A program made the position numbers and the translations under genes. Shown one piece after another: positions 2,207 to 39,984 of a DNA stretch of 39,984 nt (position 1 is its first letter; the number at the start of each line of letters is the position of its first letter). The notes beneath the pieces were generated by a model. It saw nothing but the letters and a program-made list of their open reading frames with translations, did no database searches and was not told the DNA's origin. The DNA is from a virus, in the IMG/VR virus record IMGVR_UViG_3300005939_000003, positions 1 to 39,984 of that record; one strand, written 5' to 3'.

Positions 2207-3874
2207 ATGACACAAGATTACACTTTAAATAATGTTATGGATGTACCTGAGAACTTTTTGATAGAAGAAATGTTAGATTTTTCTTGATTATCTAGAGAAG
2301 AAACATTGGAGAAGTGGAGATCAAACGTAAAATATTCAACAGAACAAAGAGACGAATATATAAAACAAGTACAGCACAACAATCTGAAAAAAAGAATATC
2401 TATAATGAGACGTGCTGAATGAGATAAAAAATTCCAAGAGTTTTATTTAGAACAATGTAAAAAGAGTCCATTAATGTTCTTTGCATTATTCTTATGGACA
2501 TATAATCCTAGACTAGATAAACCGCATCTACCGTTCATACCATATCCATTTCAAAACGATTTTATATTATCAATAGTTAATAGTATTGAGAAATGAGAAG
2601 AAGTATTTGTAGAGAAAACTAGAGACGTATGATTCTCATGGCAGATGATCTGAATATATACACGATGATGGTTATTTCACTGATGGAGTACATTATCATG
2701 ATCATATAAAGAGGATTATGTAGATGAGCAATGAAATATGGATAGTAACTTTGAAAGATATAGATACGTATTGTCTAGGCTTCCTGAGTGGATGCTACCT
2801 GACGATATGGCATCAAAATATATGAGTATATCATCAAAAGAAGATTGAGACAAAGAGATAGCAGGAGATTCATGACCTAACTTTTGAACATGATGACGTA
2901 GAAAAAGTGTATGGTTAGATGAGTTTGCATTATGGACTAGAGACTCTACTGCATTTAGAAAGACAAAGGATGTTACAGATTGCAGAATATTCTGATGAAC
3001 TCCTGAATGAACCAACAACGTATATTGAAAAGTAATGACCAACCATAAAGATTATAAACATTATTTATGTAAAAAGATCAGATTACATTGGCGTGATCAT
3101 CCACTAAAAACACAAGCATGGTATGATATGCAGAAAGCTACTAGAACAACATTAGATCTAGCAAAAGAGATAGATATAAGTTATGAAACATCAGTATCAT
3201 GAGCAGTTTATCCACTATTTACAAGGATGGCATCAAAAGGAACATTTGTATATGACATAAAGAGAAAAACATATTGATCATGGGATTTTGGTAGAGATTC
3301 AAATGCTTTTATATTATGGCAAAAGGATTATAAAACATGAATGTTATTTGTGATAAAAACATTTGAAAGAGTATGATGGCATATAAAAGACTTTGCATGA
3401 TTAGTAATATGAAAACCATATCAATGAAATAATCGAGCATATACTACTGAGGACTATGAGTTGATGGAGTATATGAGAATGATCAGATTTAGTGATCATT
3501 TCTGAGATCCATACAATTCTGATACTAAGACCACAGTACAAACTGAGACAATTAGAGAAGCATTGAGAGAAATGTGAATAAATTTAACAACAAATAGAAA
3601 ATCTACATTGAGAGAAAGAATCAATAAAACTCAATTAATGTTGAATAGAGTATTTTATGATAGCGAATGTCATGATCGAGAACAGGCAATAATTCAATCG
3701 CATTATCCACAAATAAAAGAATGATCTGAAAGTACATCAGAGAAGGATAAACCAGTACATGATGAGAACTCTCACTACAGAACAGCTACAGAATATTTTG
3801 CAGATAATGAACCAAATCATTTAGAAGATCCAAGCGATTGATGAGTTGTCGTTAATTCAACTTTATTAAATTAG
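2207..3874 (+). CDS. terL: Terminase large subunit (packaging ATPase and nuclease)
   Basis: 555 residues, the ATP-driven motor that packages DNA and cuts the concatemer. Walker A is KTRDVGFS (137-144), with UGA encoding Gly142. Walker B is SVWLDEFA with D238 and E239. The coupling motif reads C-R-I-F-G-G-T-P-E-G, both central glycines being UGA. The nuclease domain begins at YGSWDFGRD (D360), and the late HYRTATEYFAD region supplies the terminal acidic residue. Family and length are typical. These invariant glycines are the clearest proof in the window that UGA means glycine. Start ATG abuts the small-subunit stop. It ends in TAG, followed by a promoter-like repeat. Confidence 0.93.
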
Positions 3875-3935: not shown

Positions 3936-5828
3936 ATGGAATTCAAAGGAAAAGATTTAAAAAAGATTAAAGAGCTAACTATATCGGAGTTCACAACCAG
4001 TAAAAATGCTTCATCACAAAAGAGACAAACCATGAGAGACAGGACATGGCTCTATAATGTTTCTAACGTTGCGGACGAAAAAGTTAAAGTAAATCTTATC
4101 AGAAGTCTAACAAATTCATTATTAGCATTATATTATCAAGACAAATTGAGTATTAAATGGACAAGTAGAGACTTGTATCATTTTATTGAAGCTAGTAATT
4201 TTCAATCAGTATGTGAGTATGATTATGATAATCTTTCTATGGAAAAAGCAGATTATACTAATCAAAAAAATAGGTTCACAAAATGAGTATGAATCAGATT
4301 ATTAGACGGATGGGATGATCGTCAAGACTATAAGAATCCTAGCTACAAAGTAGTAGCACCTGAATCATGGTATCCTGATCCAAGTGGACATACATCAGCT
4401 GAGAACTTCCAATACATGGGATTTGAAAGAATTATGTCAGTGCAAGAAGTTAAAGCAAACTCAGATATTTGGATGAATACATGAAAAGTAGAAGCATGAC
4501 TTTCTCCTGATATGCAGGAAAAGATTGAATCAGATGCAAGTCCTAGAGATATGACAGCATTAGAAAAAGAATTATGATGATCAAATACAGTAATTTATGT
4601 ACATTATTCAAGATATAAAGGACTTCCAATACAAGTAACCATGCGAGGAGCATCAGAACTATTGGATGTTAGAGTTGTAGAACCATTGATTAGAAAGGTA
4701 AAAGGAAAAACAGAAGTCCTAAAATGGATTCCTGTATCTTTGAATTACTACGAACCTGTAGATTGAGATCCACGAGGAATTTGTCTATACGATATAGCAG
4801 AAGATAAACAGAAATTAAAGACATTGATGTATAATCTTATCAGAGTACAAGCCATCAAACAAGCATTATGAGGTAAAGTATTCTTAGATAAATCAATATA
4901 CTTCAAATCTAAAAAGATATTAGAGCAATGAGTACAATGACCACAATATATACCTGTTGATATTAAAAATAACGCAAATATAGGAAATATGATGTATAAT
5001 GAGCCAGTACAAGGAATGACTCAGGATGTATATAACTTCCCACAATTATTAGATCAACAAGTTCAAGATGATACAGGATTGAGTAGTTTGACTAGATGAG
5101 TAGCAGATCCAAATGCAGACACAGCACGTGAAGCTCAGATAGCACAGATGAATGCCAACATTAATTTGATACTCTGAAACAAAATAAACTCACGATGAGA
5201 AAAAGACTTTTGGGAGCTATGGTATCTTTATTATAAATTCTACTTCTCTGCTAAAGATGAGAAATATACAGAGCTTAATAGAGGTATATGACAATCATGA
5301 GACATATTCTCACGTAAGAATATCATAGGAGCAAACGATCCAAGACTACAAATCCAAAACAAATGAGAATTAGAGTCTAAGAATAAATCAGAATTAGCTA
5401 CTTTTGAGAGAATATATACATTGACTTTAAACGATCCTACTACTCCACCAGTTGCAAGAAGGTTTATGAAACGTAAACTTTATGCTATGCAATGAATGAG
5501 TTTAAGAGAGATCGAGCAATGATGTCCGTATACTCCAGAAGAATTGGATGCGAAAGATCATGTTATATTATTGAATAACAATATGCCTGTGATAATAGAA
5601 GATCCTAATGAAGATCATTACACATATCTTTGTATTTATCAATCAGCATTATCTACACCTGCAACAAAGTCAGCAATAGAAATGAGAAAGATGGCATATA
5701 TACAGAGCTGACAACAAGAATTGATGAATCAAGCATGACCAAATCAAGCAATGCAGAACCATGCTTCAAGACAATCACTATCTCAACAACCACAAAATTG
5801 ACCACAACCACTTTTAAATAATTACTAA
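3936..5828 (+). CDS. Portal protein
   Basis: 630 residues. It should form the dodecameric ring at one vertex of the procapsid through which terminase pumps DNA. It follows terminase and precedes scaffold and capsid, the standard order. Features seen: an N-terminal helical region, a wing-like region with D-W-Y/W-Y-P-D-P positions (about residues 135-160, APESWYPDPSG), a long helical segment with D-K-Q-K-L-K-T-L-M-Y-N-L (about 287-300), a D-D-T-G-L-S-S-L-T-R-G segment (about 380-390) of the type that precedes the stem and crown helices in podovirus portals, and a glutamine/asparagine-rich C-terminal tail that could form a barrel. The size fits P22-like and N4-like portals. Function is inferred from order, length and these segments. 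Confidence 0.8.
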
Positions 5829-8811: not shown

Positions 8812-9756
8812 ATGGGAATGACAACTAAAGGAAACGTCAATACCTCATGACAATTGTTACAAATTCGATTAAACCGCACTGTATTAGAAAACTTCGAGCC
8901 AAATTTGAGATTTTACTCTATGGGTAAAAAATCAGCATGGAAAAAAGGGTACAACACTTTGTCTCGAACAAAGGTAGATAGAAAAATATCTACACCTGCA
9001 TCTGTATTATTGACAGAAGGAGTTACTCCAACTGCTACTAATATAACTACTACTACTATATCTGTAACTGCAAACCAATACGGAGAATTTGCAACTATCA
9101 CAGATATTCTAGAGGATTCTTCTCCAATCCAAATGATTAAGGAATCTGCAAAGGTTTTAGGAAAAGATATGGCTAGAGTAATGGATTCAGTTATCCAAGC
9201 TAATCTTGAAACAAACTGAACAAACGTTATCTATGCAGGATCAGCAACTTCTAGAGCAACTTTGGGAGCTACTGACCTGATGACTCCAACCCTTCTAGCA
9301 AAAGCAAACGCATTTTTGTCTACAAAATCAGCTCCTACAATGGGAGATGCTTACGTAGCAGTTATGCATCCTAATGTTATTTACGATCTTCAAACAGGAG
9401 CATCAGCATGAGCTTTCTTAGATCTTAAAAAATACACTGATGCTAATGCGAAAGACATCATGAACTGAGAAATTGGTATGTTGTACAACGTAAGAGTAGT
9501 AAAATCTGCATGGGTTCAATCTTTCACATCAACAGTTACTGTTTATCCAACTTATGTAATGTGAGAAGGAGCATACGGAGTTGCTGATTTGCAAGCTTTG
9601 AGAACATACATCACTCCTAGATCTGCATCTGATTCAGATCCTTTGGCACAAAGACAAAAGGTGGGTTGTAAAGTAGCATTTAATTCTATTATATTGCAAC
9701 AAGACGCAATGACTAGAGTTGAGTCAGCTTCTACATTAGCATATACATTTAGTTAA
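8812..9756 (+). CDS. Major capsid protein, N4-gp56 family
   Basis: 314 residues, the likely shell protein. The pattern V-L-L-T-E-G-V-T-P, then T-A-N-Q-Y-G-E-F-A-T-I-T-D-I-L-E (about 80-100), then A-Y-V-A-V-M-H-P-N-V-I-Y-D-L (about 180-195) and a C-terminal G-V-A-D-L-Q-A-L-R-T-Y-I-T-P segment matches the N4-gp56 family of HK97-fold capsids. Codon use differs from its neighbours: of 20 glycines 11 are GGA, 3 GGT, 1 GGG and only 5 UGA, while the tail-hub gene at 11056 uses UGA for 33 of 45. A good hairpin terminator follows, fitting a strongly expressed gene. Confidence 0.9.
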
Positions 9757-10333: not shown

Positions 10334-11056
10334 ATGGCTAGAACAATAAACGATTATATTACAGAACGATTATTTGATAATGCAAAGAATGCAACAGATC
10401 TTACTCCTGCGAAAGCATTAATTCGATTCAATAGATATTTACATAGAGCTGAAAATCAAATAGCTCATTTTGTTATGGAATGATTTTTTGATGAATGATT
10501 AACAATTAGTCTTGTTGCTGGTCAAACAGAATACGATCTTCCATTATGAGATTCAGGATCTCCAGCAGTACCTACAATACCTGAATTAAAGGCATTGTTA
10601 GAATGTACAGTTAAATATTCAACTACATCATGAGAAGGAAGTTGAGTAAAAGCTACAGAGATGCCAGCAGGAAATCTACCTAATCCAGTTGCACGATATA
10701 CAGACAATCAATCAGTAGATGCTCCATATTTTAGATTTGATAATAAAAAACTAAGAATATATCCAGCACCTACAATAAATGTTACAAATTGATTAGTATT
10801 AAGATATGCTAGAACAAATGTAGATGTTGCATTGACTACAGTAGAATCAGCTCTATCAATACCTCGAGATTATATATGGGTAATTTTAGAAGGAATGTCG
10901 TACCAATTAAAGAAAACAAATAAAAGTGTTGATGCTAAGTTTTATAAAGAGGAATGGAATGAAGCATTATTAGAAATGCTAACTGCTATATGAGATAGAT
11001 ACATGCAACCATGACAATATAGAAATCCTGTTTTAACTAATCTTATGCGATTATAA
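10334..11056 (+). CDS. Putative head-tail adaptor protein
   Basis: 240 residues. The N-terminus is a helical repeat-like segment (D-Y-I-T-E-R-L-F-D-N-A-K-N ... A-L-I-R-F-N-R-Y-L-H-R-A-E-N-Q-I). Next come a beta-rich part with the turn S-L-V-A-G-Q-T-E-Y-D-L-P (about 60-72), the pattern F-R-F-D-N-K-K-L-R-I-Y-P-A-P (about 135-150), an L-R-Y-A-R segment, and C-terminal helices. This order, including the late LRIYPAP then LRYAR strands, is typical of podovirus adaptor proteins that sit between portal and tail. It follows the capsid genes and its stop overlaps the next start by one base (TAATG). Confidence 0.7.
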
Positions 11057-12582
11057 TGGCAAAAAAATATCTAGAAAAACAATGGAATAGATGAGAGTCG
11101 AAAGATCCTTTTGTATGACACAAAGGACAATTCCAATATGCTAGAAATGTAAATGTTAGAGATATTTCTAACTGAATTTGTCTAAGCTCTTTATTAGAAA
11201 ATACGAATGACACAGGAAATAATCCGACATCAAGATTCATGTATGTCTGAAATAATCACTCACAGCTAGTAAAAATTGAGACATGATGATTTCAAAGAGC
11301 TTTATTACAAAATAATTCACAACGACCTACTACAACACAATTAATCTGAAATCTTACATGAGATTCAGATGATTTTGTATTAAAATTTCAAGAAGATATA
11401 TGGGCATTTTGAAATGATATAACAGTATTTGATACAACGTTATGACAATGAGCTATAGCACCAATAGCATCTCCAACATATACAGATCCATTTAGTGGTA
11501 CTGTACATACATTTTGATCTGCAACAGCAGTTCTAGACTACTCTAACACAATGTTATTAGTAGCTGATCATAATAAATTATGGAGATATATACCAATAGC
11601 AACTCCTGAACTTCCTATTTGATGGAAAGTTATAAGAGAATTTGAAGATGATTCTGAGATCAAAGGTTTAACTATGGAGGGAAATTATCTAAAAATATAT
11701 CTAGTAAATAATAATTTAGATACAAAAATTCATTATGCAAAAGGTACTTTCGATGTAGAAGATACATGATTAGTACAAACTGTAAGTTTTGATAGATTAT
11801 ATCTAGAAAGTGTAACAACTGATTGAACATCAGATTATGCATTATTTAGAAATTCAGCAGATTCAACAGAATATATATTATACGAAATAAAATGATATAG
11901 TAGGATGGAGATGCAAAGAACTAGACTTCCAAATGATGGATGAGATATGACAACATTTATATGATCTCCATGAAATAATATGGATATTAAAGATGGAGTT
12001 CTATATTGTCCTATGGCAGATTGAATACGAACATTTAAGAAAGTAGATTGAATATGGAGTTGATTACTAGAATGGACTCTAGATGATTTTTTGTGAAATT
12101 ATTATCCATATAATTGTTATATATTTGGAGATTATTTTTATGTAAGTTGCCAATATCAATTTTGATGAGCTTATAGAGAACTTAGAGCGAATACAGAATG
12201 GATTAGTAATACATATCAACCTAGTGGATTCCTAATTTGAAGAATATACGATTGATGAATTATGTGAGAAGGAAAAACTAATTTAAAATCAACAATATGA
12301 TATTTATTGTCTAAAGATAGTGCTTCTGCTTGAAGCATAACAATCAAAATAAGACGTGATAGAGAAAGTACATGATTTGGTAACTTCTACACTATAAAAA
12401 CTGTAACAGATGTTGATAAGATGTATGCTGATCTATTTCCAACAACAGATCCTGACTTCAATAAAGAATGGAATGTTATGGAGTATCAAATACTTTTAAC
12501 AAGATGAACAGACGAAACAGTAACACCAAGATTTTATGAACTCAATTTAAACTATGACCTCACAAGAAGAATTAAATCCTAA
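11056..12582 (+). CDS. Tail-hub or DNA-stabilization beta-propeller protein
   Basis: 508 residues, beta-rich throughout, with repeated W-x-F, V-L-D-Y, L-K-I-Y-L-V and V-L-Y-C-P segments suggesting a propeller-like fold. The C-terminus W-N-V-M-E-Y-Q-I-L-L-T-R-G-T-D-E-T, then T-P-R-F-Y-E-L-N-L-N-Y, is the closing strand pattern I associate with phage tail-hub proteins such as the P22 gp10 type, which plug the portal after packaging. It is translationally coupled to the adaptor upstream. 33 of its 45 glycines are UGA. Assignment is by fold-like pattern and gene order. Confidence 0.62.
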
Positions 12583-13360: not shown

Positions 13361-14947
13361 ATGGTAACTTTTGGAGAAAGGGGTAAAATGAGAAATCTAA
13401 ATAATGACTACAATGCCTGAAAACAAACAGAAGATAGTGTCTTAAAACAATGACAAAAAATCATTGATTGATCTGATATATCTAACGATATAAATCCAAA
13501 AATAGAAACTCCTGCCAATCCTAATGGTACAGCATGAGCTTTAACTAACGTTAGAAATGCTATAGCACCTGCATGAACTCCAAAAGTAGAAGATGTGAAT
13601 CCAAATATTAATGATGAAACAAATCCAAATAATGTACCTGAAACAGAAATAAATAGCTGAGATCCAACAGATCCTGATCAAGTACAAATTGATTATGATG
13701 ATGTAAATAATACTGACTTTTTATTCAAACAAATGCTGAATTGAGAGGTAATACAAGGTCAATGAGTAGCAACTGAGAAAGCAAGAAAAAGACGAAATAA
13801 CTTCAATTCTATATCATCTCTATCTCCTAAACAGATCTGAGATAGTATAATTGCAGGAACATTAGAACAATTTGATCCTTCAATTATAGACATTAAGAAT
13901 GTAAATCCTGAATTATTTGCATGAATAAGTGCTTATATAGAAGCAAAGCAATGATTGGATGATATAAATGCAGTTTGAGAAAGTATATATGATTCACTAA
14001 ATACAACAAAAAAAGATGGAGATCCATATGCAAATTATAAAATAAAGACTGATAAAATAACACCTCCTACAACTTTGGAGAAATATAATAAGAAATTATT
14101 TGACAAAATTACTGCACAATTCTGAGAGAATTCAGCTGAGATGTTCACAATGACACAACAAATTATGCAGAATCCTGAGATACAATTACAAAAAGATGTA
14201 GTATGAGAATTAGACAAACAAAGAATGCAAATGCAAGAAAATATATACAATTTGCCAGCAGATGCTAAAGCAATATTATGATCATCAGCACCTGATTCAT
14301 TAACAAGTGCTTATATATCTCAACAAACTAGAAACCTACAAACACAGTTGAGAACTATAGATAATGAGTTATTAGTTGAACAATGAAAATTAAGTAGTCA
14401 AATGGAAGAAGTAGATACAATATTAGATGCTTTCTATAAAGGTATGAAAATGGATGCTGATCTTGCAGAAGCAGAACTTAAAGCTAAAAAAGGTTCAGGA
14501 TGATCAGGATGATGATCAAGATGAGGTTGAGCTGATTCGTCATGATATAATAATCTATTTGAAGCAATGGCGAGTTGATCATTTTGAGGATCATATAGCC
14601 AAACAGCAATGAAAACATATGGGCTATGACCTACTACAAAAACAGGTATAAAAGAATGGATATGAAATAATAAATCATATGAAGAAATATTAAATCTAGC
14701 ATGAAGTTCTTATTTCACAGAATGAGATATTGAAGAAATGATTACAAATATGGGTAGAGATGTAATATCTGAAATAAAAGCAGTTATGTCATGATGAGGT
14801 ACAGAAGAAGAACAAAATACAAAAATTCTAGGTTTATTATGATGAATACCTGAGAAGGTTCAAAAACAATTGTTAAAAAAAGCATGAATTAAATGATCAT
14901 GGTTCTTCTGATTACGAGGAAGAAGATGAGAAATTTTAGATAGCTAA
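13361..14947 (+). CDS. Hypothetical internal virion protein
   Basis: 528 residues. The N-terminal 120 residues are Asn/Pro/Asp-rich and probably disordered. Residues 125-370 are long helices with Q-M-Q-N-P-E-I-Q-L-Q-type spacing. A linker of almost pure glycine and serine (378-395) follows, mostly UGA-encoded. The C-terminal part (about 400-528) begins with S-S-G-Y-N-N-L-F-E-A-M-A and resembles the short region that phages place before peptidoglycan-crossing or ejection domains. It sits directly upstream of the giant polyvalent gene, so an ejected or internal protein is the best guess. No catalytic motif seen. Confidence 0.7.
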
Positions 14948-14958
14948 AACAAATATAT

Positions 14959-17900
14959 ATGTGATTATTTGATTTCTTCAATAAAGCTAAAGATAAAGTA
15001 ATAGATATTTTTGATTGAGAAAATGATGTACCTACACAGACATCACAAGTACAGCAATGATGAGTGAATGCTATGTTATGATCTAATCCTACACAACCAA
15101 AACAATCATTAGTTTGAACTGAATGAAAATGATATGTTAGAGGTACTAAGGATAGAGGTGGACTTGCTTCAATAACAGAAGCACCTAGCTTTTTTGAAAA
15201 AACCAAAAACTCTTTCACAAATAAACGATGGAATCCAGTACAAGATATGGCTAGACCACAAGAAGAAGTTAGAGCAGAAAAACAAGAAGAATTTAAAGAG
15301 TATTGAAATCTAGCATGATCAGCAGAACAAAAAGCACAAATATTAAAAGGTTCAGTAGCTCGTATGTGATTTGATACTGCAAAATGACTTGCATGACCAA
15401 ATATAAGATCTGCATGAAATCTAATTACAGATCCAGCATGATTTATAGATAAATATTTACCCGATTCATTAAAATGATGAATTATATGAAAATATATATG
15501 ATCTAGTATTAATCCTGTATGATCAATATTAAATGCTTCATTAAGTTCTAGTATGCAAAAAACTGTAGAATCACTTATAAATAAATGATCAAATACAGTG
15601 GTTGATGCAATAAAAGAACAAGAAACAAAGTTTTTTGATAATAGACCACGATTGGATGATCTTCAATCTAAAACAGATCAGAAATCTATGCTAAAAGCAT
15701 TATATGAATGAGATATAAACACAGTCTGAAATAAGCTTGTATCAGTTATATGACAAAATATTTGACCAGTCCTTGTAACTCTTTTAACAAAGAGTCCTAC
15801 AGCATGAGGAATGGCATTTCTTCCATTAGAATCAAATTCAATGTTAGAAGATCTAAATACTGATCCAGCAACAAAAGATCTAGATCCATGAACAAAAGAT
15901 ATATTAGCAAATATGTATTGATTAATATCATCTTTCATAGAATGAAAAGGTATGGAAATAGCTCTATCTCCATTAACTATAAAGAAAGCTATAACATGAA
16001 AATCATGACCTGCATTATTAAGTGCAGTAAAACAATTAGCTGAAACAATGTGATTTGAATGAGCAGAAGAAGTAGCACAATCAAATCTACAAGATGCGAT
16101 TGCTATAATTATGTGATCAGATAGAGATTGGAGTACATTAAAAGAAAATTGGGATCTATTTGTTGAAGCATGATTAACAAGTTTCTGAATATGATTACCA
16201 TGATCTATACAAGCATGAGTAAATCAATCTCAAATAAACAAACAAAATAAAAGAGATGAAGCAATTAAAAAGATAGATGGAAAAAGAGTAGAGGAACAAA
16301 AATACCAAATAAAAGAATGAGAAGCAAATGAAAAAACATTCAATTATAAAGAAGAATTAGAGAAGACTCATCAAGAAAAAAGACAAAAAAGAACAGATCT
16401 ATATGATGAATATAAAGTAAAAGACGAGGAGATTTCTGTTGTATATGATGATCTGAAAGCTCTAAATATTGATAAGAAATGATATTGACCTTGAATATCT
16501 ACTTTAACTGATGTATTAGAAGAATGAAAATTCAATGAGGTTATTGCAAGAAATTTAACAGACTTTGATTTCTTTGATAGATTACCAAAAAGATCAAAAG
16601 ATATAATAAATAGACAGATAGAAGTTTTTGATAAATATAATAATGTTAATAAAGAATATGATAAAATATACCAAGATCTAGAAACTAAAAGACGAGATAA
16701 TTCAAAAAAAGAACTAACAACAAAATTTATAGAAGATCTAAAGACATCAAGTAAAAAGGATATTGTATCAAGACAGATGTTAGAGTGAATGCTTAACAGA
16801 TGATATAAATGACCTGAAATTAGGATAGCAAAAGAAATATTGGATTCTATGGAATGAGAAAAGGTTAGTAAAATAGAATTTATAAAGAAATTTAAAGATA
16901 AATTATTGCCATTAAACGTAAAGGAATCTAGAAAATTTGCAGACTATAATTATTTAATAGATGGAAACAGCAAAGAATATAAAGAATCAGGTAGATATGT
17001 AGAAGCAAAAGCTCAGACAACATGGCTATTAGAATCTCCATATGAAACAAAAGCTCAGACAACATGGCTATTAGAATCTCCATATGAAACAAAAGCATCA
17101 TGATCTCACTTTGGAAATGATACGGAGTCATATTTTTGACATGTAAGGATAGAAGAAATAGAGGAGGATAATATGATAAGATTAATTGAGTTGCAGTCAG
17201 ATCTAATGCAATGAAGAAGATATGAATGAGATAGTAAACTCCATGATTCAAAATTTTATGTTAAGGAAACGACAAAGCAATTAAAAAGATTAGATATTGA
17301 AATAGATACATTACAAAAGCTTAGAGACAATAAAGAAATAGCAGAGGAGATTATAGATGAGAAACATCAGTTATTCAATAGATCTTTAGAGGAAAGAGAG
17401 GTATCAGAAAATATAATGATAGAATCTGCAAAGGAACTAAGAGTTGAGACATATATATTAAGATCATTAGCATCAGATCTTTTAGAACATCAAAAAGGAA
17501 GTGTTCATGTTGAGAAGACGATTGACCAACTAATTGATTTTGTTGAAGCTAATATAGAAGCAAAGATTATATATTTCAAGAAAGAAATTAAAAACGAGCA
17601 GGATAATATAGACAATGCATCAGAAGAAGAAATAACTAAATTGCAACAATTTGAAGATTATAAAAGTAAACGACATGAAAGATTAGTAAAAGAATTTATA
17701 AGAGAATCTAAAAGCAAAGGAGCAGAATCAGTACAAATACCAGTTTGAAAGACAGTAGCAAAAATTCAATGATACTTAGAAACAGGATGACAAATGCCTG
17801 AATGATTAGAGGTATGAGATGAGCATGAATGAGATTTATGAAATGTAATTGTTACAACAGTTTATTGAGATTGATCTTGATATGGAGTAATTTCTGACTC

Positions 17901-20900
17901 AGAGTTTGCATTTGAGACAACTGTTGAAGAATTTATAAAGGAAGAAGTTGATAATTTGTTTGAGAATCTTGACGATTATGATGCTACAGAGTTTTTGAAA
18001 GCTCAATATCCTGATACAGATCTATGAGATTTAACTGAATCAGAATATGTAACTGAAAATCTACAAAATGAATTTGAGGAGTGGGTAGAAGAAGATAGAT
18101 ATACGAAAGATGATCATGATAGAAAAATGAGAGTATTAGATACACTTGAAAATATGTGATATTGAATGGTTGTAGCAAATAATGATTGAAATATTACAGT
18201 ATTCAAAGAATGAGCATATGAGGAATTTCAATCATCATGAGATACTGAATGATCAGATCGAGATGAGCAATATGAAAACCTATCTGATGAACAAAAAACA
18301 GTAGTAGATTTCTATGATAGAAAATTAATACCATATATACAAAAAACAAGAAAAGATGCAGAAATAGTAGAGTCAGACTGAGCTGAATGGATACAATTTG
18401 ATCTAAAAGAAGAAGATAAATGACCAGTAGTAGCATTTAAAAAATCAACTACAGACAAGAAAAAAGAATTAAAAGACGATGAGAAATATTTTGAAGCGGT
18501 AGACAAAGCTTATGTCTTTAAGAGTCCATTAGCAAAGGAAATATCACAAACAGAAGGGCGAAAACTAATAGAAAAACAAGCAAAAAATGCTTGATTTGTT
18601 GCTGAATTCACTGACAAGATATTTACTGATGATTGACAGGAAGCTCTAGGATCATTTTTCAAAAATACAATTACATTAGCAAAAGATATTACTGACACTA
18701 CAGCACAACATGAGTTATTTCATGGATTATTTAGATTAACAGATACAAAAACAAGAAAAGAGTTATTGGCAGAAGCAATGATATATTTAGATACAGATAA
18801 TCAACTTATTGCTGAGGAGCGACTTGCTGAATCTTTTTGAGTATATGCTAGAAGATGACAAATAAAAGCTTTTGAATTAAAAAGATCAACATGAGTAGAT
18901 TGATTTATTGAGAAAGTTATGGATTTCTTTCAACAAGTTTTTGAGTTCTTTCAAGCAATGAAAATTGATAGAGCATCAATCAACCAATTATTTGATGATA
19001 TGATCGAAGGAAAATTCAAAGATGTAAAATGATTCAGTAGCTCAAAGATACCTAGCTCTGCTAAAACATATTATAAACTTCAAACAGATCCATACACAAG
19101 ATCATACAATAATTATGTTGAGAGAGTACAAAAAATGGAAGCTAGGGAGCAGTTGATATGAACTGTTGCATGAAAGAAAGTTGATAAAGCACACTCTGAT
19201 AAACAAAGCAAATCATGGAGAAAAGACCAAGAAAGTCTTATAGAATCTATATGACAAGAATTTGAATTAGATGCAAACGAAGCAGTAGATATGTATGATA
19301 AAATGGTTGATGATAGACAAATGAAATCAGATTCAAGAAAATCTTTCGATAAACAATTTGAAGAATATACAAAAAGATCAGAAGCAAATGCAGATCCATT
19401 GACTCAGGATCTTAATCCTATGGATGTAAAAGAGATAAATACAATATTAAATAACGATATATTAGAGACAGCAGAATTTTTTGAATCTCTACCAAAAAAA
19501 GAGAAAGAAGAATTTGACACAGTATTTTGAGTAAATCTTTGAGATCTTAAATGAGCAAATCTAACAGAACAGCAAAAGAAATGAGTATCTATATTTGGTT
19601 GAGCAATGCTAAAATCTAGAGCTAGATGAAATGAAATATCAGAAGTAGAGAATATATTGAGATGAAAAGATCTATTAAAAAAATCACAGATACTTAAAGA
19701 TTGATATGGTAAATCAGAAGATTTCATCAACAAAGAATTATTGATTCCTAATAAAGAGATAAACGAAACATATTATGATGATAATGCAGTAAATGAGGAC
19801 GAAGCTACTATGATCTTATGACATGGTAGATTTAAGGTTATGAAAGAAGTTCTACAATATATGAGATGAACTTTTAGACCATGAGGAACAATTATAGAAA
19901 ATAGATCTCCAAAATTACGACAAGACTTCAAAGATCAAGTAGATTTTGAGGAAGAAGATAAAGTTATGAAATTATATGAAACTATAGATATTAGAGAAGA
20001 TAAAATAGAACCTACAAAGAAATTAAAAAGATGAACTAGAAAAGCTCTAGCAAAGACTGAGAATATTCTAGAATTCTTATGAGTATTAGAAGATAGAGAA
20101 AAGGCAGATTTCTTAAAATTATGGTTATCAGCAAGATGACAAGATTTCAAGACATCTAAAGAGATATTAAAATCATATGGATTAGCACCAGCAGGGTTTG
20201 ATAAAGCTCTAAAATTCTTTGATGAAGCATATATGGATCTTATCGAAGCTGGAATAGAAGTTTGATATAAAGAAAATTATTGGGCATCTATGATCAAAGA
20301 TAGGCAATGATTATTAGAACACTTTAAAACAGATAAAGAATTACGAGGACACATAGAAAATGCAGTAGAAAGAGTAGAGAGGATCAGGGGGAAAATGTCT
20401 GATGCGGAGAAAGAAGATCTAAGGATAGCACTTATATCATGAGCAAGACCTGAATGATCAGATCTAAAATTATCGTTCACTCAAAAGAGGGTTTTGGAGA
20501 CTCTAACAAAGGAGACAGCAAAATTCTACTTCAACATGAGAGAAAGTATGTCTAAATATATGAATCAATATGTTTCTAAGGTAACAATGGTAAAATTCCT
20601 TGAATCAAATTGGGATACAAAAGATGAACTAAATTCATTGGTAGTTAAAAAAGTTAAGTCTTATGTAAAAGATGGATTGGTAGATAAATGACAAGAAGAA
20701 ATTGTTATTAAATATATGGTATCTCGTATAGGTTCAGATGTTACTACAGAACTGGTACAAAAATTAAAAGCACTTACATATACAGTAAAGATATGTAATT
20801 TTGCTAGTACAATGACACAATTATGAGACGTATGATTGGGAGCATCAGAATATTGAGTAAAGCCAGCCACAAAGAATTTCACAAGAGCTATGCTTTGAAA

Positions 20901-21906
20901 ATCTATATTCAAAAAATCAGATGTTGTACACTCTATATCATCAGATGTTCCAATGTGAAAATCTAGCACAGAGCAGTTATTGACTAGGTTATTGACTATA
21001 ACATGATTTACAAAAATGGATAGATATGGTAAAGAAGTTATATTAAATAGTGCATTTGATGAAGCAGTAAAATTAACAAAAAAATGAGATAAGAAGTTTA
21101 TGAACTTTCTAAACAAATATTATTCAGAAGAACATGTAGAAAAACTTGTAGATGATTTCAAAAATAAGAGAAAGAATAAAAATACTAGACAATATGTATA
21201 TGCTCAATTATGTAAGATCCAGCCACAAAGTCAGACAGAGATGACAAAAGCATATTGGGATCATCCATGAGGAATGAGATATTTATACACTCTGAAAACT
21301 TTTGCAATTAAGCAGACTGATTATGTATTAAATATGATCAAGAAGAATTATGAAACATATTCAGCACCTGTAGCAACATTAAAATCTATAAGATCAATAT
21401 TATATATTATATTGTTTGGTATGCTGAAAGATGAATTAAAAAATATATTCTTATTCAGAAAAAATAGTTCATGGTTATATAGAATGATCACATGAAAGAA
21501 ATCAACATGAGCAATTCAGGAGCAGTTTATGGATAATCTATTACAATTATTTATGTTCTCAAAATATAGTATATATCAAGCAAAAACTGAATGAGTGGGA
21601 GCTATGATAAAAGATCTATTGATTGGAATACCAGCATTAGATATATTAACATATCCAGCATATGATCTACAAAAGGTATATGATTGGTTAGTAAAAGATT
21701 GAGATCCAGTAACATATAAAGATTTGAAATCATTTCAATTAATACCAATAGTATGAAAAAATATATATTGGAACTTTGGAAGATGACAGGCATCTCAACA
21801 AAAAGCATACTGAAAAATAAAGAAAGAATCTGAGTATTGATTAGATTTAGATCTTGACTTAGACCTTGACCTTGACTTAGACCTTGACTTAGATTTAGAT
21901 CTTTAA
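14959..21906 (+). CDS. Giant polyvalent virion protein with zincin protease motif
   Basis: A single 2,315-residue frame, 17% of the genome. Residues 1-450 hold small-residue, partly hydrophobic helices with a basic coiled coil after them. Residues 717-748 (S-H-F-G ... G-H-V-R-I ... L-I-E-L-Q-S-D) match the large-polyvalent-protein domain pattern S-H-x ... H-x-R ... E-I-Q-S-D; the companion G-A-E-S-V-Q-I-P-V-G-K-T segment is at 921-932. An HELFH zinc-protease motif lies at 1251-1255, with E1286/E1287/E1291 in E-E-R-L-A-E-S-F as candidate third ligand. Residues 2087-2120 carry the late Q-P-Q-S-Q-T-E-M ... L-K-T-F pattern of the same protein class. Such proteins are packaged and injected with phage DNA. 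It begins ATG-UGA and ends in a (Leu-Asp)10 tail. Confidence 0.85.
17006..17096 (+). repeat. Exact 42-bp tandem duplication inside the giant gene
   Basis: Copies at 17006-17047 and 17048-17089 are identical, and seven bases of a third copy follow (17090-17096). Each unit encodes 14 residues (Q-T-T-W-L-L-E-S-P-Y-E-T-K-A), so the frame is kept. It lies just before the EIQSD-like domain. Identity at the base level indicates a very recent duplication or active slippage. Confidence 0.95.
21841..21903 (+). repeat. Leu-Asp dipeptide repeat at the C-terminus of the giant protein
   Basis: Residues 2295-2315 are ten Leu-Asp pairs plus a final Leu. The codons vary (TTA/CTT for Leu, GAT/GAC for Asp), so the hexamers TTAGAT, CTTGAC and TTAGAC alternate rather than repeat exactly. 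The protein pattern therefore seems maintained while the DNA has drifted, which argues for selection on the peptide. Confidence 0.9.
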
Positions 21907-28102: not shown

Positions 28103-31100
28103 ATGAAACTATTTAAAAAGATATTAATGTGATTGCTACCTGTTATGATACTAGGTTCAGCTTTCGCTATAATATTACAACCTTACGTTACAAATTACAC
28201 AGCGGTAACAATACCAGCTGATGCAGATTTAATGTTGCTAGAGACATCTAACACAGGTGCGAAAGCAAAAATCACAGCAGAAAATCTAAGAAGTTATATG
28301 ACAGCAAATAGCTGAGATTATTTATTAGTAGCAAATAGTTGAGACTATTACACAACAAATCCACTTGCATATATAACAGGTGGGCAAGTGTTAGCTGATA
28401 ATGGACTTACAAAAACTGTAAATACAGTAGAAATGTGAGGAACTTTGACAAAAAGCACAAATATATATAATGACTGAAACAATTTCTATGTTCGTGGAGA
28501 TTGATTAAATGCAATATCAAATGCATGAATTGATAATTATTTAGCAACACATCCAACATCTATAGAGTTATACTCTAATAATTGGGATATGACAGTAACT
28601 GACTGAGTTGCTGAAATTAATGATGCATTTTGAAGCAAAGGAATAAACTATGCTTCTGATTATTCAGGAAATTATGATGCAAGAACACTTATAGACAAAT
28701 GATATGTAGATGCTGAAATATTATCTGCTACTCCTGATACAATATATACAGCAGACGGAACATTATTAGGGAGCAGGACTATAGATGCTTCTTGAAATAT
28801 TTTAAACTTTACTAATTTAGGTTTTCTATGATTTAATTGAGCTAATAATTTTGAGATAGAATTTGACTGAGCAGAGTTCAAATTTCAGTCAGATAGAATG
28901 CAATTAAATTCTCCACTAGCTTGAAATTTTGACTTTAATGATTTATGAGCAGTTTGGCATGACTGACAGGCAACTCCATTATGATTACAATATTATGCTG
29001 ATTATTCTTGAACTATGGTAGATAGAAGTATTGTAGATAAGTGATATGTAGATGGAGAAATAGTAGATGCTTCTACTTTACAAACTTGGCAAGATACAAT
29101 AACAAATCAAATAGCACAAGACTGATATATACATGTAGACCTTTGAGCTACATATATTGAAGATGATTGATGAGCAACATCAAGCCAAATAAAAATATGA
29201 GGATATGAATGGGAGATAAGCGATGAAAACTCTGACACTGCTTTAGTAATCAAATCTCCAACAAACTCAACATCTGAAGATTGACACATGCTAATGTACG
29301 ACAATAGAACGAGTCCTGAATGAATAGTTTATCTTAATGATTATTCTGCTACATTTACAGGAAATTCTTTAGTAAATAAACATTATGTAGATAATAGTAT
29401 TTGAGCTATAACATGAGATTTTTTACCTTTAGCTTGAAATACAGAAGCAACTAGAATTACTTGACCTGTACGATTAGAAAGTGAGGGTAGTATACAATGG
29501 TCTAATTATTGAGTACCTTGATTGCCTACAATGGAGATAAACTGATATATTGGTTGAAACGAATTACTTTTTCAAGTATATAGTGGTGCTTACAAATGAG
29601 GTTTTGGTATAGAAAATTTCTACCCAACTCTAAATTATCAATGAGACGATATACCTTATGCACAAAAAGTAGATATGCACTGATATTGATTGACAGAAAA
29701 TACTGATTATAGTTCTTTTTATACAGGATTATCTTTAGTAAACAAAGATTATGTAGATTGAGAAATTGAGACAGCAAGTTGATTCTATGTACATCTAGAA
29801 TGAGACGAAGAAATAAATTGAATAAAGACTTTTTCCGACAATACAGTATTTAATTGAAACACATTTTTCAATGGAACTGCAACATATATAAATTCAACAA
29901 ATTTAGATGTAGAAGATAAAAATATCTTCTTGTGAGTAATAACAGGGGCGACTGATATAACTGCAAATTGAGGTGGTACTTTATTGAGTTGAGACAATCA
30001 ACATTGACGAACTTTCGACAATGCTAATGATAGTTTTGATATAGAAACAGATAACTTAAATGTAACAAACTGAGCAGAATATAGAATAAATGATGTAAAT
30101 ATTTTAGCAAGCACTGTTGCAAATAGTACAACACTTGGAGCAACACAAAATGCAATAAGTGGATTCGTATATTGATTATGATATTTAACAACAGAAACAG
30201 ATCCAGTATGGAGTGCAGTTTCTGCTGATTATCTATTAGTAGCAGATAGTTGAACTTATTATAATAATACTATAGCAAGTTCATTATTGCCATACTTAAC
30301 AATAGCAAATAGTGGAAATTACTACGATACTAACTTTGCTATAGATAGCTGAACTTATTATGATGCAAACATTGCTAGTTCTCTATCTCCTTACTTATTG
30401 TTAGCAAACAGTTGAGATTACTATACAACAAATCCTTTAAATTATATAACTTTAGCAGAAGTACCTGCTGACGAAAATATATATAATATTGATTGAACTT
30501 TAACTTCTGATAGAACAATAAGTGCAGGAGGAAACAGTCTTACTATAACATGATGATTAAATACTTTGATAGATAGTACATATACAAGGATTAAATCTTC
30601 AACTGATGCAAACACTTTTGTAACAGTAACAACAGATGATGTATCTATCAACTCATCAGATAATATAACAGTATGAGATACTGCAAACGAAATAATAATT
30701 TGAGATATATACGATGCATGATTTGATGAATCTTATATGGAGATGGATGTTCTAAATAAAGATCGAAAAGTATCTTTGAATTGAGCTAGTGATCTATTAT
30801 CAATGTCTAATTGAGCTTTCTCTTATGCAGGATGAGCTGGAGAAATGTTTTTCAATAGCAATTGATTTGCTATGTATACTCCATGACTACCAGCAACTAG
30901 AAACGAAATAGGATATGATACTACGACAAAAATAGCAACAGTTAGAGGGCAAAGTTGAGTAACTTTGACAACACAATGAGCTGAAATACTTATGTCTCCA
31001 ACACTAATACAATCAAGTATAAACGATAGTTATATAGCAATCGCAGATAGTCCGTGAGCTGAATGAGTGTATATATCATCAAAAGAATGACCGGTATTTA

Positions 31101-31537
31101 TTGGTTATTATGACAGTCAAACAGTACCAGATACAGATGAAGTAAATATATGAGCAAATACAGAGATTAATCTTAAAGTTGCAAGTGTAGGATTCTGAGA
31201 AAGATTATTGGTAACATCATGAGTTGTAGCAATATGAAGTGATCAAGTATCAGTGCAAGCTAGAAACAATGTTTGATTACTATTAGATTGAGGAAATCTA
31301 CCTATATACATGTGATATAGTATGTGATGAGTACCAACACCTGATACAGATGAAATATATATGAGTGCAAATACAGATATAACAATTGAAACTCCAATAA
31401 TGGAATTGACTGGTTGAGTTATGAGGATGACAGATAATGGAAGCTCACGACAATTTGCAATAAATATTAGCTGAGAGTTAGATGTTCAATTCCTATCGTG
31501 ATCTACTCGAGAAACTGCTTCAACTTTTACAAAATAA
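28103..31537 (+). CDS. Long tail fibre protein with an N-terminal signal peptide
   Basis: 1,144 residues. The first 24 look like a secretion signal: basic M-K-L-F-K-K, a hydrophobic core I-L-M-G-L-L-P-V-M-I-L-G, then S-A-F-A. After it comes V-T-I-P-A-D-A-D-L-M-L-L-E-T-S ... K-I-T-A-E-N-L, a fibre motif I know from many phages. K-x-Y-V-D-x-x-I motifs recur at about 201, 315, 428 and 550, a period near 115 residues, marking tandem domains. A-N-S-G-D-Y-Y motifs recur near 70-90 and 712-783. The C-terminal 300 residues contain two V-P-D-T-D-E-V/I-x-I-x-A-N-T-x-I modules. A signal peptide on a fibre is unusual and worth checking against an alternative start. Confidence 0.78.
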
Positions 31538-39493: not shown

Positions 39494-39943
39494 ATGATAA
39501 CAGTAATTATAATATTATTTGTACTTATAGCAGTATTATTCTGTGCGGTATTATGACTGATTGATAGACTAGAAAAATGAGAAGCAGATAATATAAAAAT
39601 TAGAAAAAATGCATCTGATTATGTATTAGATACAAATAATTCATTTAGAAAAGTTCAGGGAGATATGGAGCATTTCAAAAGTGAATTAGAGAGTCATGAA
39701 GAAGAAATAGAAGATCTTGCAGATGATACAGATAAATTCTTTTATTTCTATGCTATAAAATATTTGCTAGAAGAAACAAGACTAAAAATCGACTCAAACA
39801 GTACATTATATATTGTTATTGAAGGTAAGGAGATAGACGAAATAGAGATGACGATCGAGGTAGAATGAAAAAATATAGAATTATCAAAAGATTGATTAAC
39901 ATACCTTGTTAGTAGATTTTGAACAAGAAACCTAGAGAAATAA
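39494..39943 (+). CDS. Membrane-anchored coiled-coil protein crossing the circular junction
   Basis: 149 residues. One N-terminal membrane segment (I-T-V-I-I-I-L-F-V-L-I-A-V-L-F-C-A-V-L-G-L-I), then a helical stretch (F-R-K-V-Q-G-D-M-E-H-F-K-S-E-L-E-S-H-E-E-E-I-E-D-L-A) likely coiled coil, then a mixed C-terminal region. It starts one base after the Rad52 stop, and its end duplicates bases 1-39. Possibly co-expressed with the Rad52-like and Acb2-like genes on one transcript. Function unknown. Confidence 0.78.
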
Positions 39944-39984
39944 CCTTTTATATTAATTATATTAAAAAAAATGAACTCTACATG
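39905..39984. repeat. Terminal direct repeat marking the circular junction (copy 2)
   Basis: Identical to bases 1-80, including the first 14 bases of the Acb2-like gene. Joining the copies gives a 39,904-bp circle with uninterrupted reading frames. Confidence 0.9.

What the first reader, a model, noticed from the sequence alone, without database searches (positions are those of the whole stretch)
14959..21906. 2,315-residue polyvalent protein hidden by recoding
Standard-code calling cuts this into dozens of fragments. Intact, it carries the EIQSD-type polyvalent domain, an HELFH zincin and the Q-P-x-x-x-T-E-M ... L-K-T-F module. An injected protease of this size in a phage of a tiny host is notable; it may attack host defences or process virion proteins.
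Basis: partly seen in the sequence, partly recalled or inferred. Interest (0 to 1): 0.7.

Follow-up and report, generated by a model that had tools for sequence, protein, structure and literature searches.

The report
Giant modular phage cargo protein
A phage that reads the stop codon TGA as glycine encodes one 2,315-residue protein that joins a metalloprotease-like domain to an undescribed C-terminal module shared by several phages; it looks like a variant of the known class of giant proteins thought to be injected with phage DNA.

Summary
Under genetic code 25 (TGA=Gly) window 14959-21906 is one open frame of 2,315 aa; it is shattered under the standard code. The zincin claim holds: HELFH plus a downstream invariant Glu align with 17 other phage zincins, a profile built without the window finds it (E 7e-18), and the AlphaFold core resembles solved zincins. 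Its nearest relatives lie in crAss-like giant proteins; one is positionally equivalent to crassvirus gp47, reported in virions by mass spectrometry. The 'EIQSD' stretch (ELQSD here) is weakly supported by one relative.

Beyond the finding: the C-terminal ~520 aa (QPQSQTEM...LKTF) is a real family (leave-one-out E 4e-50), found in five uncultured phage lineages, two TGA-recoded and three standard-coded. It has no Pfam or PHROG match and is not LPD38. The syntenic protein of a sister phage keeps only this module and carries a nuclease domain instead of the zincin.

Best reading: a virion-borne, ejected polyvalent protein made of a conserved C-terminal module and exchangeable passengers. Neither virion presence nor the protease target is shown. 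The missing zincin in the sister phage argues against an essential virion-maturation protease. New variant of a known kind.

The parts
14959..21906 (+). 2,315-aa giant protein gene (code 25, 116 TGA=Gly, TAA stop), predicted 264 kDa
15679..16248 (+). aa 241-430, N-terminal region with one hydrophobic stretch (aa 259-279); possible membrane or ejection segment (inference)
   Evidence: hydropathy; borders set by eye
17002..17096 (+). 42-bp near-perfect tandem duplication, 2.3 copies, encoding KAQTTWLLESPYET twice (aa 684, 698)
   Evidence: the aa stretch is identical in L002 and L003
17134..18543 (+). aa 726-1195, EIQSD-type region (FGHVRIE, ELQSD, IPVGKTVAKIQGY blocks), weakly supported
   Evidence: collinear short blocks with L044 giant ORF, best E 0.002, alignment; end set by eye
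18610..19047 (+). aa 1218-1363, zincin-like metallopeptidase domain
   Evidence: profile of 17 other phage zincins, E 7.2e-18; tblastn to crAss-like giants; AlphaFold core pLDDT about 90; zincin matches
18709..18723 (+). HELFH, predicted Zn ligands H1251 and H1255 and general base E1252
   Evidence: H1251 and E1252 invariant, H1255 nearly invariant in alignment A8
18814..18819 (+). E1286-E1287, candidate third Zn ligand (E1287 invariant in 18 of 18 rows)
   Evidence: role inferred
20227..21792 (+). aa 1757-2278, conserved C-terminal module shared by five phage lineages
   Evidence: leave-one-out profile E 4e-50
21841..21903 (+). aa 2295-2315, (Leu-Asp)n tail, outside the conserved module
13361..14947 (+). 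528-aa protein directly upstream, homologous to the protein at the same place in G001
   Evidence: 23.5%, E 1e-16
11056..12582 (+). 508-aa protein, syntenic homologue in G001
   Evidence: 30%, E 5e-45
8812..9756 (+). major capsid protein
   Evidence: PF25209 E 1.4e-9; 53% to G001
3936..5828 (+). portal protein
   Evidence: phrog_1216 E 2e-4; 41% to G001
2207..3874 (+). terminase large subunit
   Evidence: phrog_10250 E 2e-6; 51% to G001

Best explanation
It is a phage-type polyvalent protein: a virion-internal cargo protein, encoded among the head genes, that is packaged and ejected into the host with the DNA. Its ~520-aa C-terminal module is the conserved part, most likely needed for packaging or ejection. 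The regions in front are exchangeable passengers; in this phage they include an ELQSD region and a zincin that most likely acts after ejection, by cutting the giant chain to free its parts or by cutting a host protein. Shown here: the gene, the code, the zincin homology and fold, the C-terminal family, and the swapped passengers. Inferred: packaging, ejection, catalysis and target.
For: Zincin profile E 7e-18 and C-terminal module profile E 4e-50, both built without the window, with no hit in 6 other window proteins or 6 shuffles. HExxH present in 17 of 18 related loci from other phages, each inside an open frame of at least 1,216 codons within the fetched stretch. Fold: helix, three strands, HELFH helix, two helices, core pLDDT about 90; leading VIA-align rows are zincins (PPEP, IrrE/PprI, lethal factor, ArdC) at Z 4.5-6; the 8 BFVD matches at E<=0.001 are listed at 1,103-1,497 residues, 7 of them named as crAss-like or cr-numbered phages and one without a name. 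The tikkala relative matches crassvirus gp47 by gene order and size; gp47 (262.5 kDa) was detected in virions (PMC10172136, passages read). Passengers differ between family members: SNase in G001 (PF00565 E 1.3e-8), methyltransferase-like in L036 (E 6e-5, under Pfam's cut-off). In G001, terminase 51%, portal 41% and capsid 53% identical, giant protein 21% over the C-terminal module only. In L042 the gene just upstream encodes a GH108 wall hydrolase (E 2e-18), which suits an ejection module.
Against: No virion or infection data. No Pfam or PHROG model convincingly matches the giant protein (the best PHROG E on any piece is 0.0024). MPTase-PolyVal and LPD38 profiles do not match. Foldseek against PDB gave nothing at E<=0.001 and Z 6 is modest. 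The C-terminal module was modelled with low confidence (pLDDT 44.5). No cultured phage carries the module detectably, so its function is inferred from conservation and position alone. The zincin-like stretch in L036 reads EEIIH, not HEXXH, so catalysis may not be needed in the family.
Confidence: 0.68

Rival explanations
1. The zincin is a virion-maturation protease that cleaves head or ejection proteins during assembly, and the giant protein is a structural polyprotein.
For: Gene lies in the head gene run after capsid and portal. Phage P1 DdrB is cut before packaging, possibly by its own zincin (PMC5512222, passages read).
Against: Sister phage G001, with syntenic head genes at 41-53% identity, has no HExxH in its giant protein. 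In L036 the motif is EEIIH. N4 vRNAP carries HExxH yet is packaged uncut (PMC5512222, passages read).
Confidence: 0.12
2. The zincin is an ejected effector that cuts a specific host protein, such as a defence sensor.
For: Passengers are swapped between sister phages while head genes are kept, as for accessory host-directed functions. The same phage carries an Acb2/Tad1-like gene, so counter-defence is plausible.
Against: No target evidence. Self-processing explains the same facts, and Iyer et al. name processing as a likely common theme (abstract and passages).
Confidence: 0.3
3. The giant protein is a tail tape measure or other purely structural protein, with a zincin relic.
For: Size, position and helical C-terminus.
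Against: HEXXH plus Glu kept; portal and adaptor profiles are of the podovirus SU10 kind; passengers are exchanged.
Confidence: 0.08
4. The giant protein is a virion RNA polymerase or RNA polymerase subunit, like N4 vRNAP or crassvirus gp47.
For: The closest annotated zincins sit in proteins labelled RNA-polymerase subunit, and N4 vRNAP also has zincin then a large helical C-terminus (PMC12633501, passages read).
Against: blastp of the giant to N4 vRNAP: no match at E<=1. To the crAss protein only the zincin matches significantly. No polymerase profile in Pfam or PHROGs.
Confidence: 0.05

Closest known systems
Phage-type polyvalent proteins (Iyer et al. 2017, PMC5512222)
   Same: Giant multidomain phage protein with zincin in the head gene region; varied passengers in relatives
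   Different: None of the Pfam polyvalent domain models matches; C-terminal module is not LPD38 and has no name in the libraries searched; recoded with TGA=Gly
Crassvirus gp47-type giant virion protein (PMC10172136; tikkala WEU69768.1)
   Same: Same zincin clade (29% identity, E 1e-9); similar size (2,310 aa); gp47 is in virions
   Different: Zincin near the C-terminus there (2132-2258) and mid-protein here; no significant match outside the zincin; different phage type
LPD38-tailed giant proteins of podoviruses (Bacillus phage Palmer gp20 and others)
   Same: Palmer shares the capsid family (30.6%) and carries one giant protein with LPD38 near its C-terminus; other LPD38 giants are annotated with methylase or RelA/SpoT
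   Different: C-terminal modules are unrelated by profile
Escherichia phage N4 virion RNA polymerase
   Same: HExxH zincin followed by a large helical C-terminal part, ejected
   Different: No polymerase domain found here; no blastp match

Membership tests
Zincin-like metallopeptidase | HEXXH helix plus downstream Glu | tested here: met
   H1251 E1252 H1255; E1287 invariant in 18 of 18 rows
Zincin-like metallopeptidase | N-terminal helix, three-stranded sheet, two C-terminal helices | tested here: met
   core pLDDT about 90; zincin matches at Z 4.5-6, modest; Foldseek PDB not significant
Zincin-like metallopeptidase | Zinc binding and proteolysis | not testable with these tools
   needs assay
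Pfam MPTase-PolyVal (PF18818) | Match to the curated model | tested here: not met
   no match at E<=10; the control rang in 3 of 14 genomes, none over cut-off
Pfam LPD38 (PF18857) | Profile similarity of the C-terminal module | tested here: not met
   hhalign probability 0.4%; LPD38 profile hits Palmer when left out (E 6e-77) and none of 5 members of the new family; alone was uninformative, its controls did not ring
Phage-type polyvalent protein | Several unrelated domains in one large chain | tested here: met
   zincin plus C-terminal module firm; ELQSD region weak
Phage-type polyvalent protein | Delivered into the host with the DNA | not testable with these tools
   inferred from gp47 and N4 parallels
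N4-type virion RNA polymerase | Polymerase domain | tested here: inconclusive
   no blastp match to N4, no polymerase profile; distant homology not excluded
EIQSD-type domain | Conserved motif blocks in order | tested here: inconclusive

The most novel reading that the evidence does not exclude
The C-terminal module defines an undescribed carrier domain of uncultured phages with both genetic codes: a delivery tag to which phages attach interchangeable passengers (zincin, nuclease, methyltransferase), so that any passenger joined to it is loaded into the virion and ejected.
Probability: 0.35. Interest if true: 0.65.

Novelty: new variant of a known kind. Interest (0 to 1): 0.5.

Why it matters
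It places the polyvalent injection strategy in a phage that reads TGA as glycine, a code used by the Absconditabacteria and Gracilibacteria, and shows how standard gene calling hides such proteins. The conserved C-terminal module with swapped passengers gives a concrete, testable candidate for the part that sends giant proteins into virions.

Tried and rejected
LPD38 identity of the C-terminal module: rejected. TGA=Trp and TAG recoding: rejected. Direct Pfam and PHROG matches on whole protein and ten pieces: none convincing. Relatives in GTDB genomes: two scans, 206 stretches matched a pattern in all (143 and 63), none a confirmed relative. Cultured phages with the C-terminal module: none found with six queries from the five lineages against 50,697 records (P0001 and its C-terminus; P0003; P0004; L042; L038). 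The portal gave no tblastn match. Four records with related terminases were opened; they are annotated with tape measure, sheath or major tail proteins, so look like long-tailed phages, and were not pursued. The upstream 528-aa protein gave no meaningful PDB match. The fold of the C-terminal module is too uncertain to search. Literature: no paper found naming a giant or polyvalent protein in code-25 phages in searches; in PMC10746230 a term search found 'polyvalent' and 'giant' 0 times. The library holds open-licence papers only.

Rows dropped: of 19 zincin loci, L043 (this same virus) and L057 (same protein stretch as L056) were left out of A8. L059 was kept although it lacks the second His. 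L013, L034, L040 and L041 are overlapping fetches of records already held and were not counted again.

Full report
OBSERVATION. Window 14959-21906 (+) is one open frame of 2,315 aa with 116 in-frame TGA and a TAA stop. Under table 11 the longest + strand ORF listed inside it is 110 aa. The longest code-25 ORF in 200 mononucleotide shuffles of the window was 253 aa. Across the window the code-25 coding fraction is 0.915 against 0.171 for code 11. TGA means glycine: of 108 TGA positions aligned with standard-code homologues of the capsid, terminase and giant proteins, 49 face Gly and none faces Trp. The record is a virus record with an exact 80-base terminal repeat, which suggests but does not prove a complete genome. 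The same protein, identical over the shared 2,165 and 846 residues, is in two other IMG/VR records.

THE PHAGE. Terminase, portal, capsid and, among 37 scanned proteins, SU10-type adaptor and portal profiles point to a podovirus-like phage; morphology is inferred. Capsid relatives in named phages include the Bacillus phages Palmer and Page (about 30%). Palmer and Paenibacillus phage API480 each carry one giant gene after the head genes (1,678 and 1,631 aa). The host is inferred from the code: Absconditabacteria and Gracilibacteria use code 25, and so do many of their predicted phages (PMC10746230, abstract and passages). No spacer match was tested.

ZINCIN. tblastn finds the region in crAss-like giant proteins (4 records; 6 records). 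An alignment-based scan found 19 loci, one being this same virus. In the other 18, each match lies in an open frame of at least 1,216 codons within the fetched stretch, and 17 of 18 have HExxH. In alignment A8 (window plus 17) H1251, E1252 and E1287 are invariant and H1255 and E1286 nearly so. A profile from the 17 rows without the window finds the window protein at aa 1218-1363 with E 7e-18 (database size set to 100,000) and hits none of 6 other window proteins or 6 shuffles. It does not find the N4 zincin either, so this is a separate clade at this sensitivity. AlphaFold gives a confident core with the expected helix, three strands and helices (mean pLDDT of the whole model 63). VIA-align's leading rows are zincins, at Z up to 6.0, which is modest; Foldseek against PDB has nothing at E<=0.001; against BFVD there are 8 matches at E<=0.001, 7 in named crAss-like or cr-numbered phages and one unnamed. 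A profile search of PDB sequences has zinc metalloprotease Zmp1 / Pro-Pro endopeptidase on top at E 0.014, in keeping but not significant. The tikkala protein (WEU69768.1, 2,310 aa) corresponds to phiCrAss001 gp47 by order and size of the neighbouring genes (my inference). gp47 was detected in virions (PMC10172136, passages read).

ELQSD REGION. The motif is ELQSD at aa 744, not EIQSD. One zincin relative, L044, has VLEVQSD and two further blocks in the same order within one open frame. The best block has E 0.002. I call this weak support.

C-TERMINAL MODULE. The sister phage G001 (terminase 49-51%) has a 1,479-aa protein at the same place. It aligns to P0001 significantly only at 1752-2276 (21%, E 1e-22), lacks HExxH, and carries a staphylococcal-nuclease domain at its own C-terminal end (E 1.3e-8). 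Scans with growing alignments added L036/L035, L038/L039 and L042, whose giant frames are open in the standard code. Five lineages result. Leave-one-out profiles find each left-out lineage: E 4e-50 (window), 2e-57 (G001), 2e-45 (L036), 3e-85 (L042), 4e-74 (L038), with no hit in the controls. No Pfam or PHROG model matches the module convincingly in the members scanned. It is not LPD38: hhalign probability 0.4% and an LPD38 profile recovers Palmer when left out (E 6e-77) but none of the five. Passengers vary: zincin here, SNase in G001, a methyltransferase-like stretch (E 6e-5, below cut-off) and a weak zincin-like stretch reading EEIIH in L036, none named in L038 and L042. By a simple hydropathy scan a hydrophobic stretch lies within the module in 3 of 5 lineages.

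CONTRAST. Between window and G001 the terminase is 51%, portal 41% and capsid 53% identical, while the giant protein keeps only its C-terminal module at 21%. The N-terminal three quarters have been replaced or have diverged beyond blastp. This is what one expects of a carrier with exchangeable passengers, and not of an essential virion-maturation protease.

MECHANISM. Most likely: packaged in the head, ejected with DNA, the C-terminal module serving packaging or ejection, the zincin freeing parts of the chain or cutting a host protein after entry. Steps after 'gene, homology and swapping' are inferred. Iyer et al. (PMC5512222, passages read) discuss both zincin roles and note that N4 vRNAP is packaged uncut.

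NOVELTY. Giant injected zincin proteins are a known kind. What I did not find named is the C-terminal module, or this class in a code-25 phage (searches; open-licence library only). Hence new variant of a known kind, interest 0.5.

Noticed in passing
67-333 (+, code 25); match at 151-315: 88-aa frame with a match to the Acb2/Tad1 hairpin family (PF24729, 29.1 bits, cut-off 27, E 4.7e-8): a candidate anti-CBASS or anti-Thoeris sponge in a TGA-recoded phage. Eight of 14 control genomes ring below the cut-off, so caution.
   Followed up: partly
1-80 and 39905-39984: Exact 80-base direct terminal repeat, suggesting a complete genome or an assembler overlap.
   Followed up: partly
17002-17096: Near-perfect 42-bp tandem duplication inside the giant gene.
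   Followed up: partly
21841-21903: (Leu-Asp)n tail at the end of the giant protein, beyond the conserved module.
   Followed up: no
L012:1424-5863: Sister phage's giant protein carries a staphylococcal-nuclease domain after its conserved module.
   Followed up: yes
L044, giant frame, downstream of the ELQSD-like region: A second HExxH (HEFAH) follows the ELQSD-like region in the L044 giant frame, before its main zincin.
   Followed up: no
L059:4001-4420: A relative whose zincin lacks the second His (HEVME), a possible inactive form.
   Followed up: no
28103-31537: 1,144-aa code-25 frame with no Pfam or PHROG match.
   Followed up: no
1206-1277: tRNA-Met (CAT) is the only tRNA found; no tRNA-Gly reading TGA was seen by ARAGORN, so the phage presumably uses the host's.
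   Followed up: no
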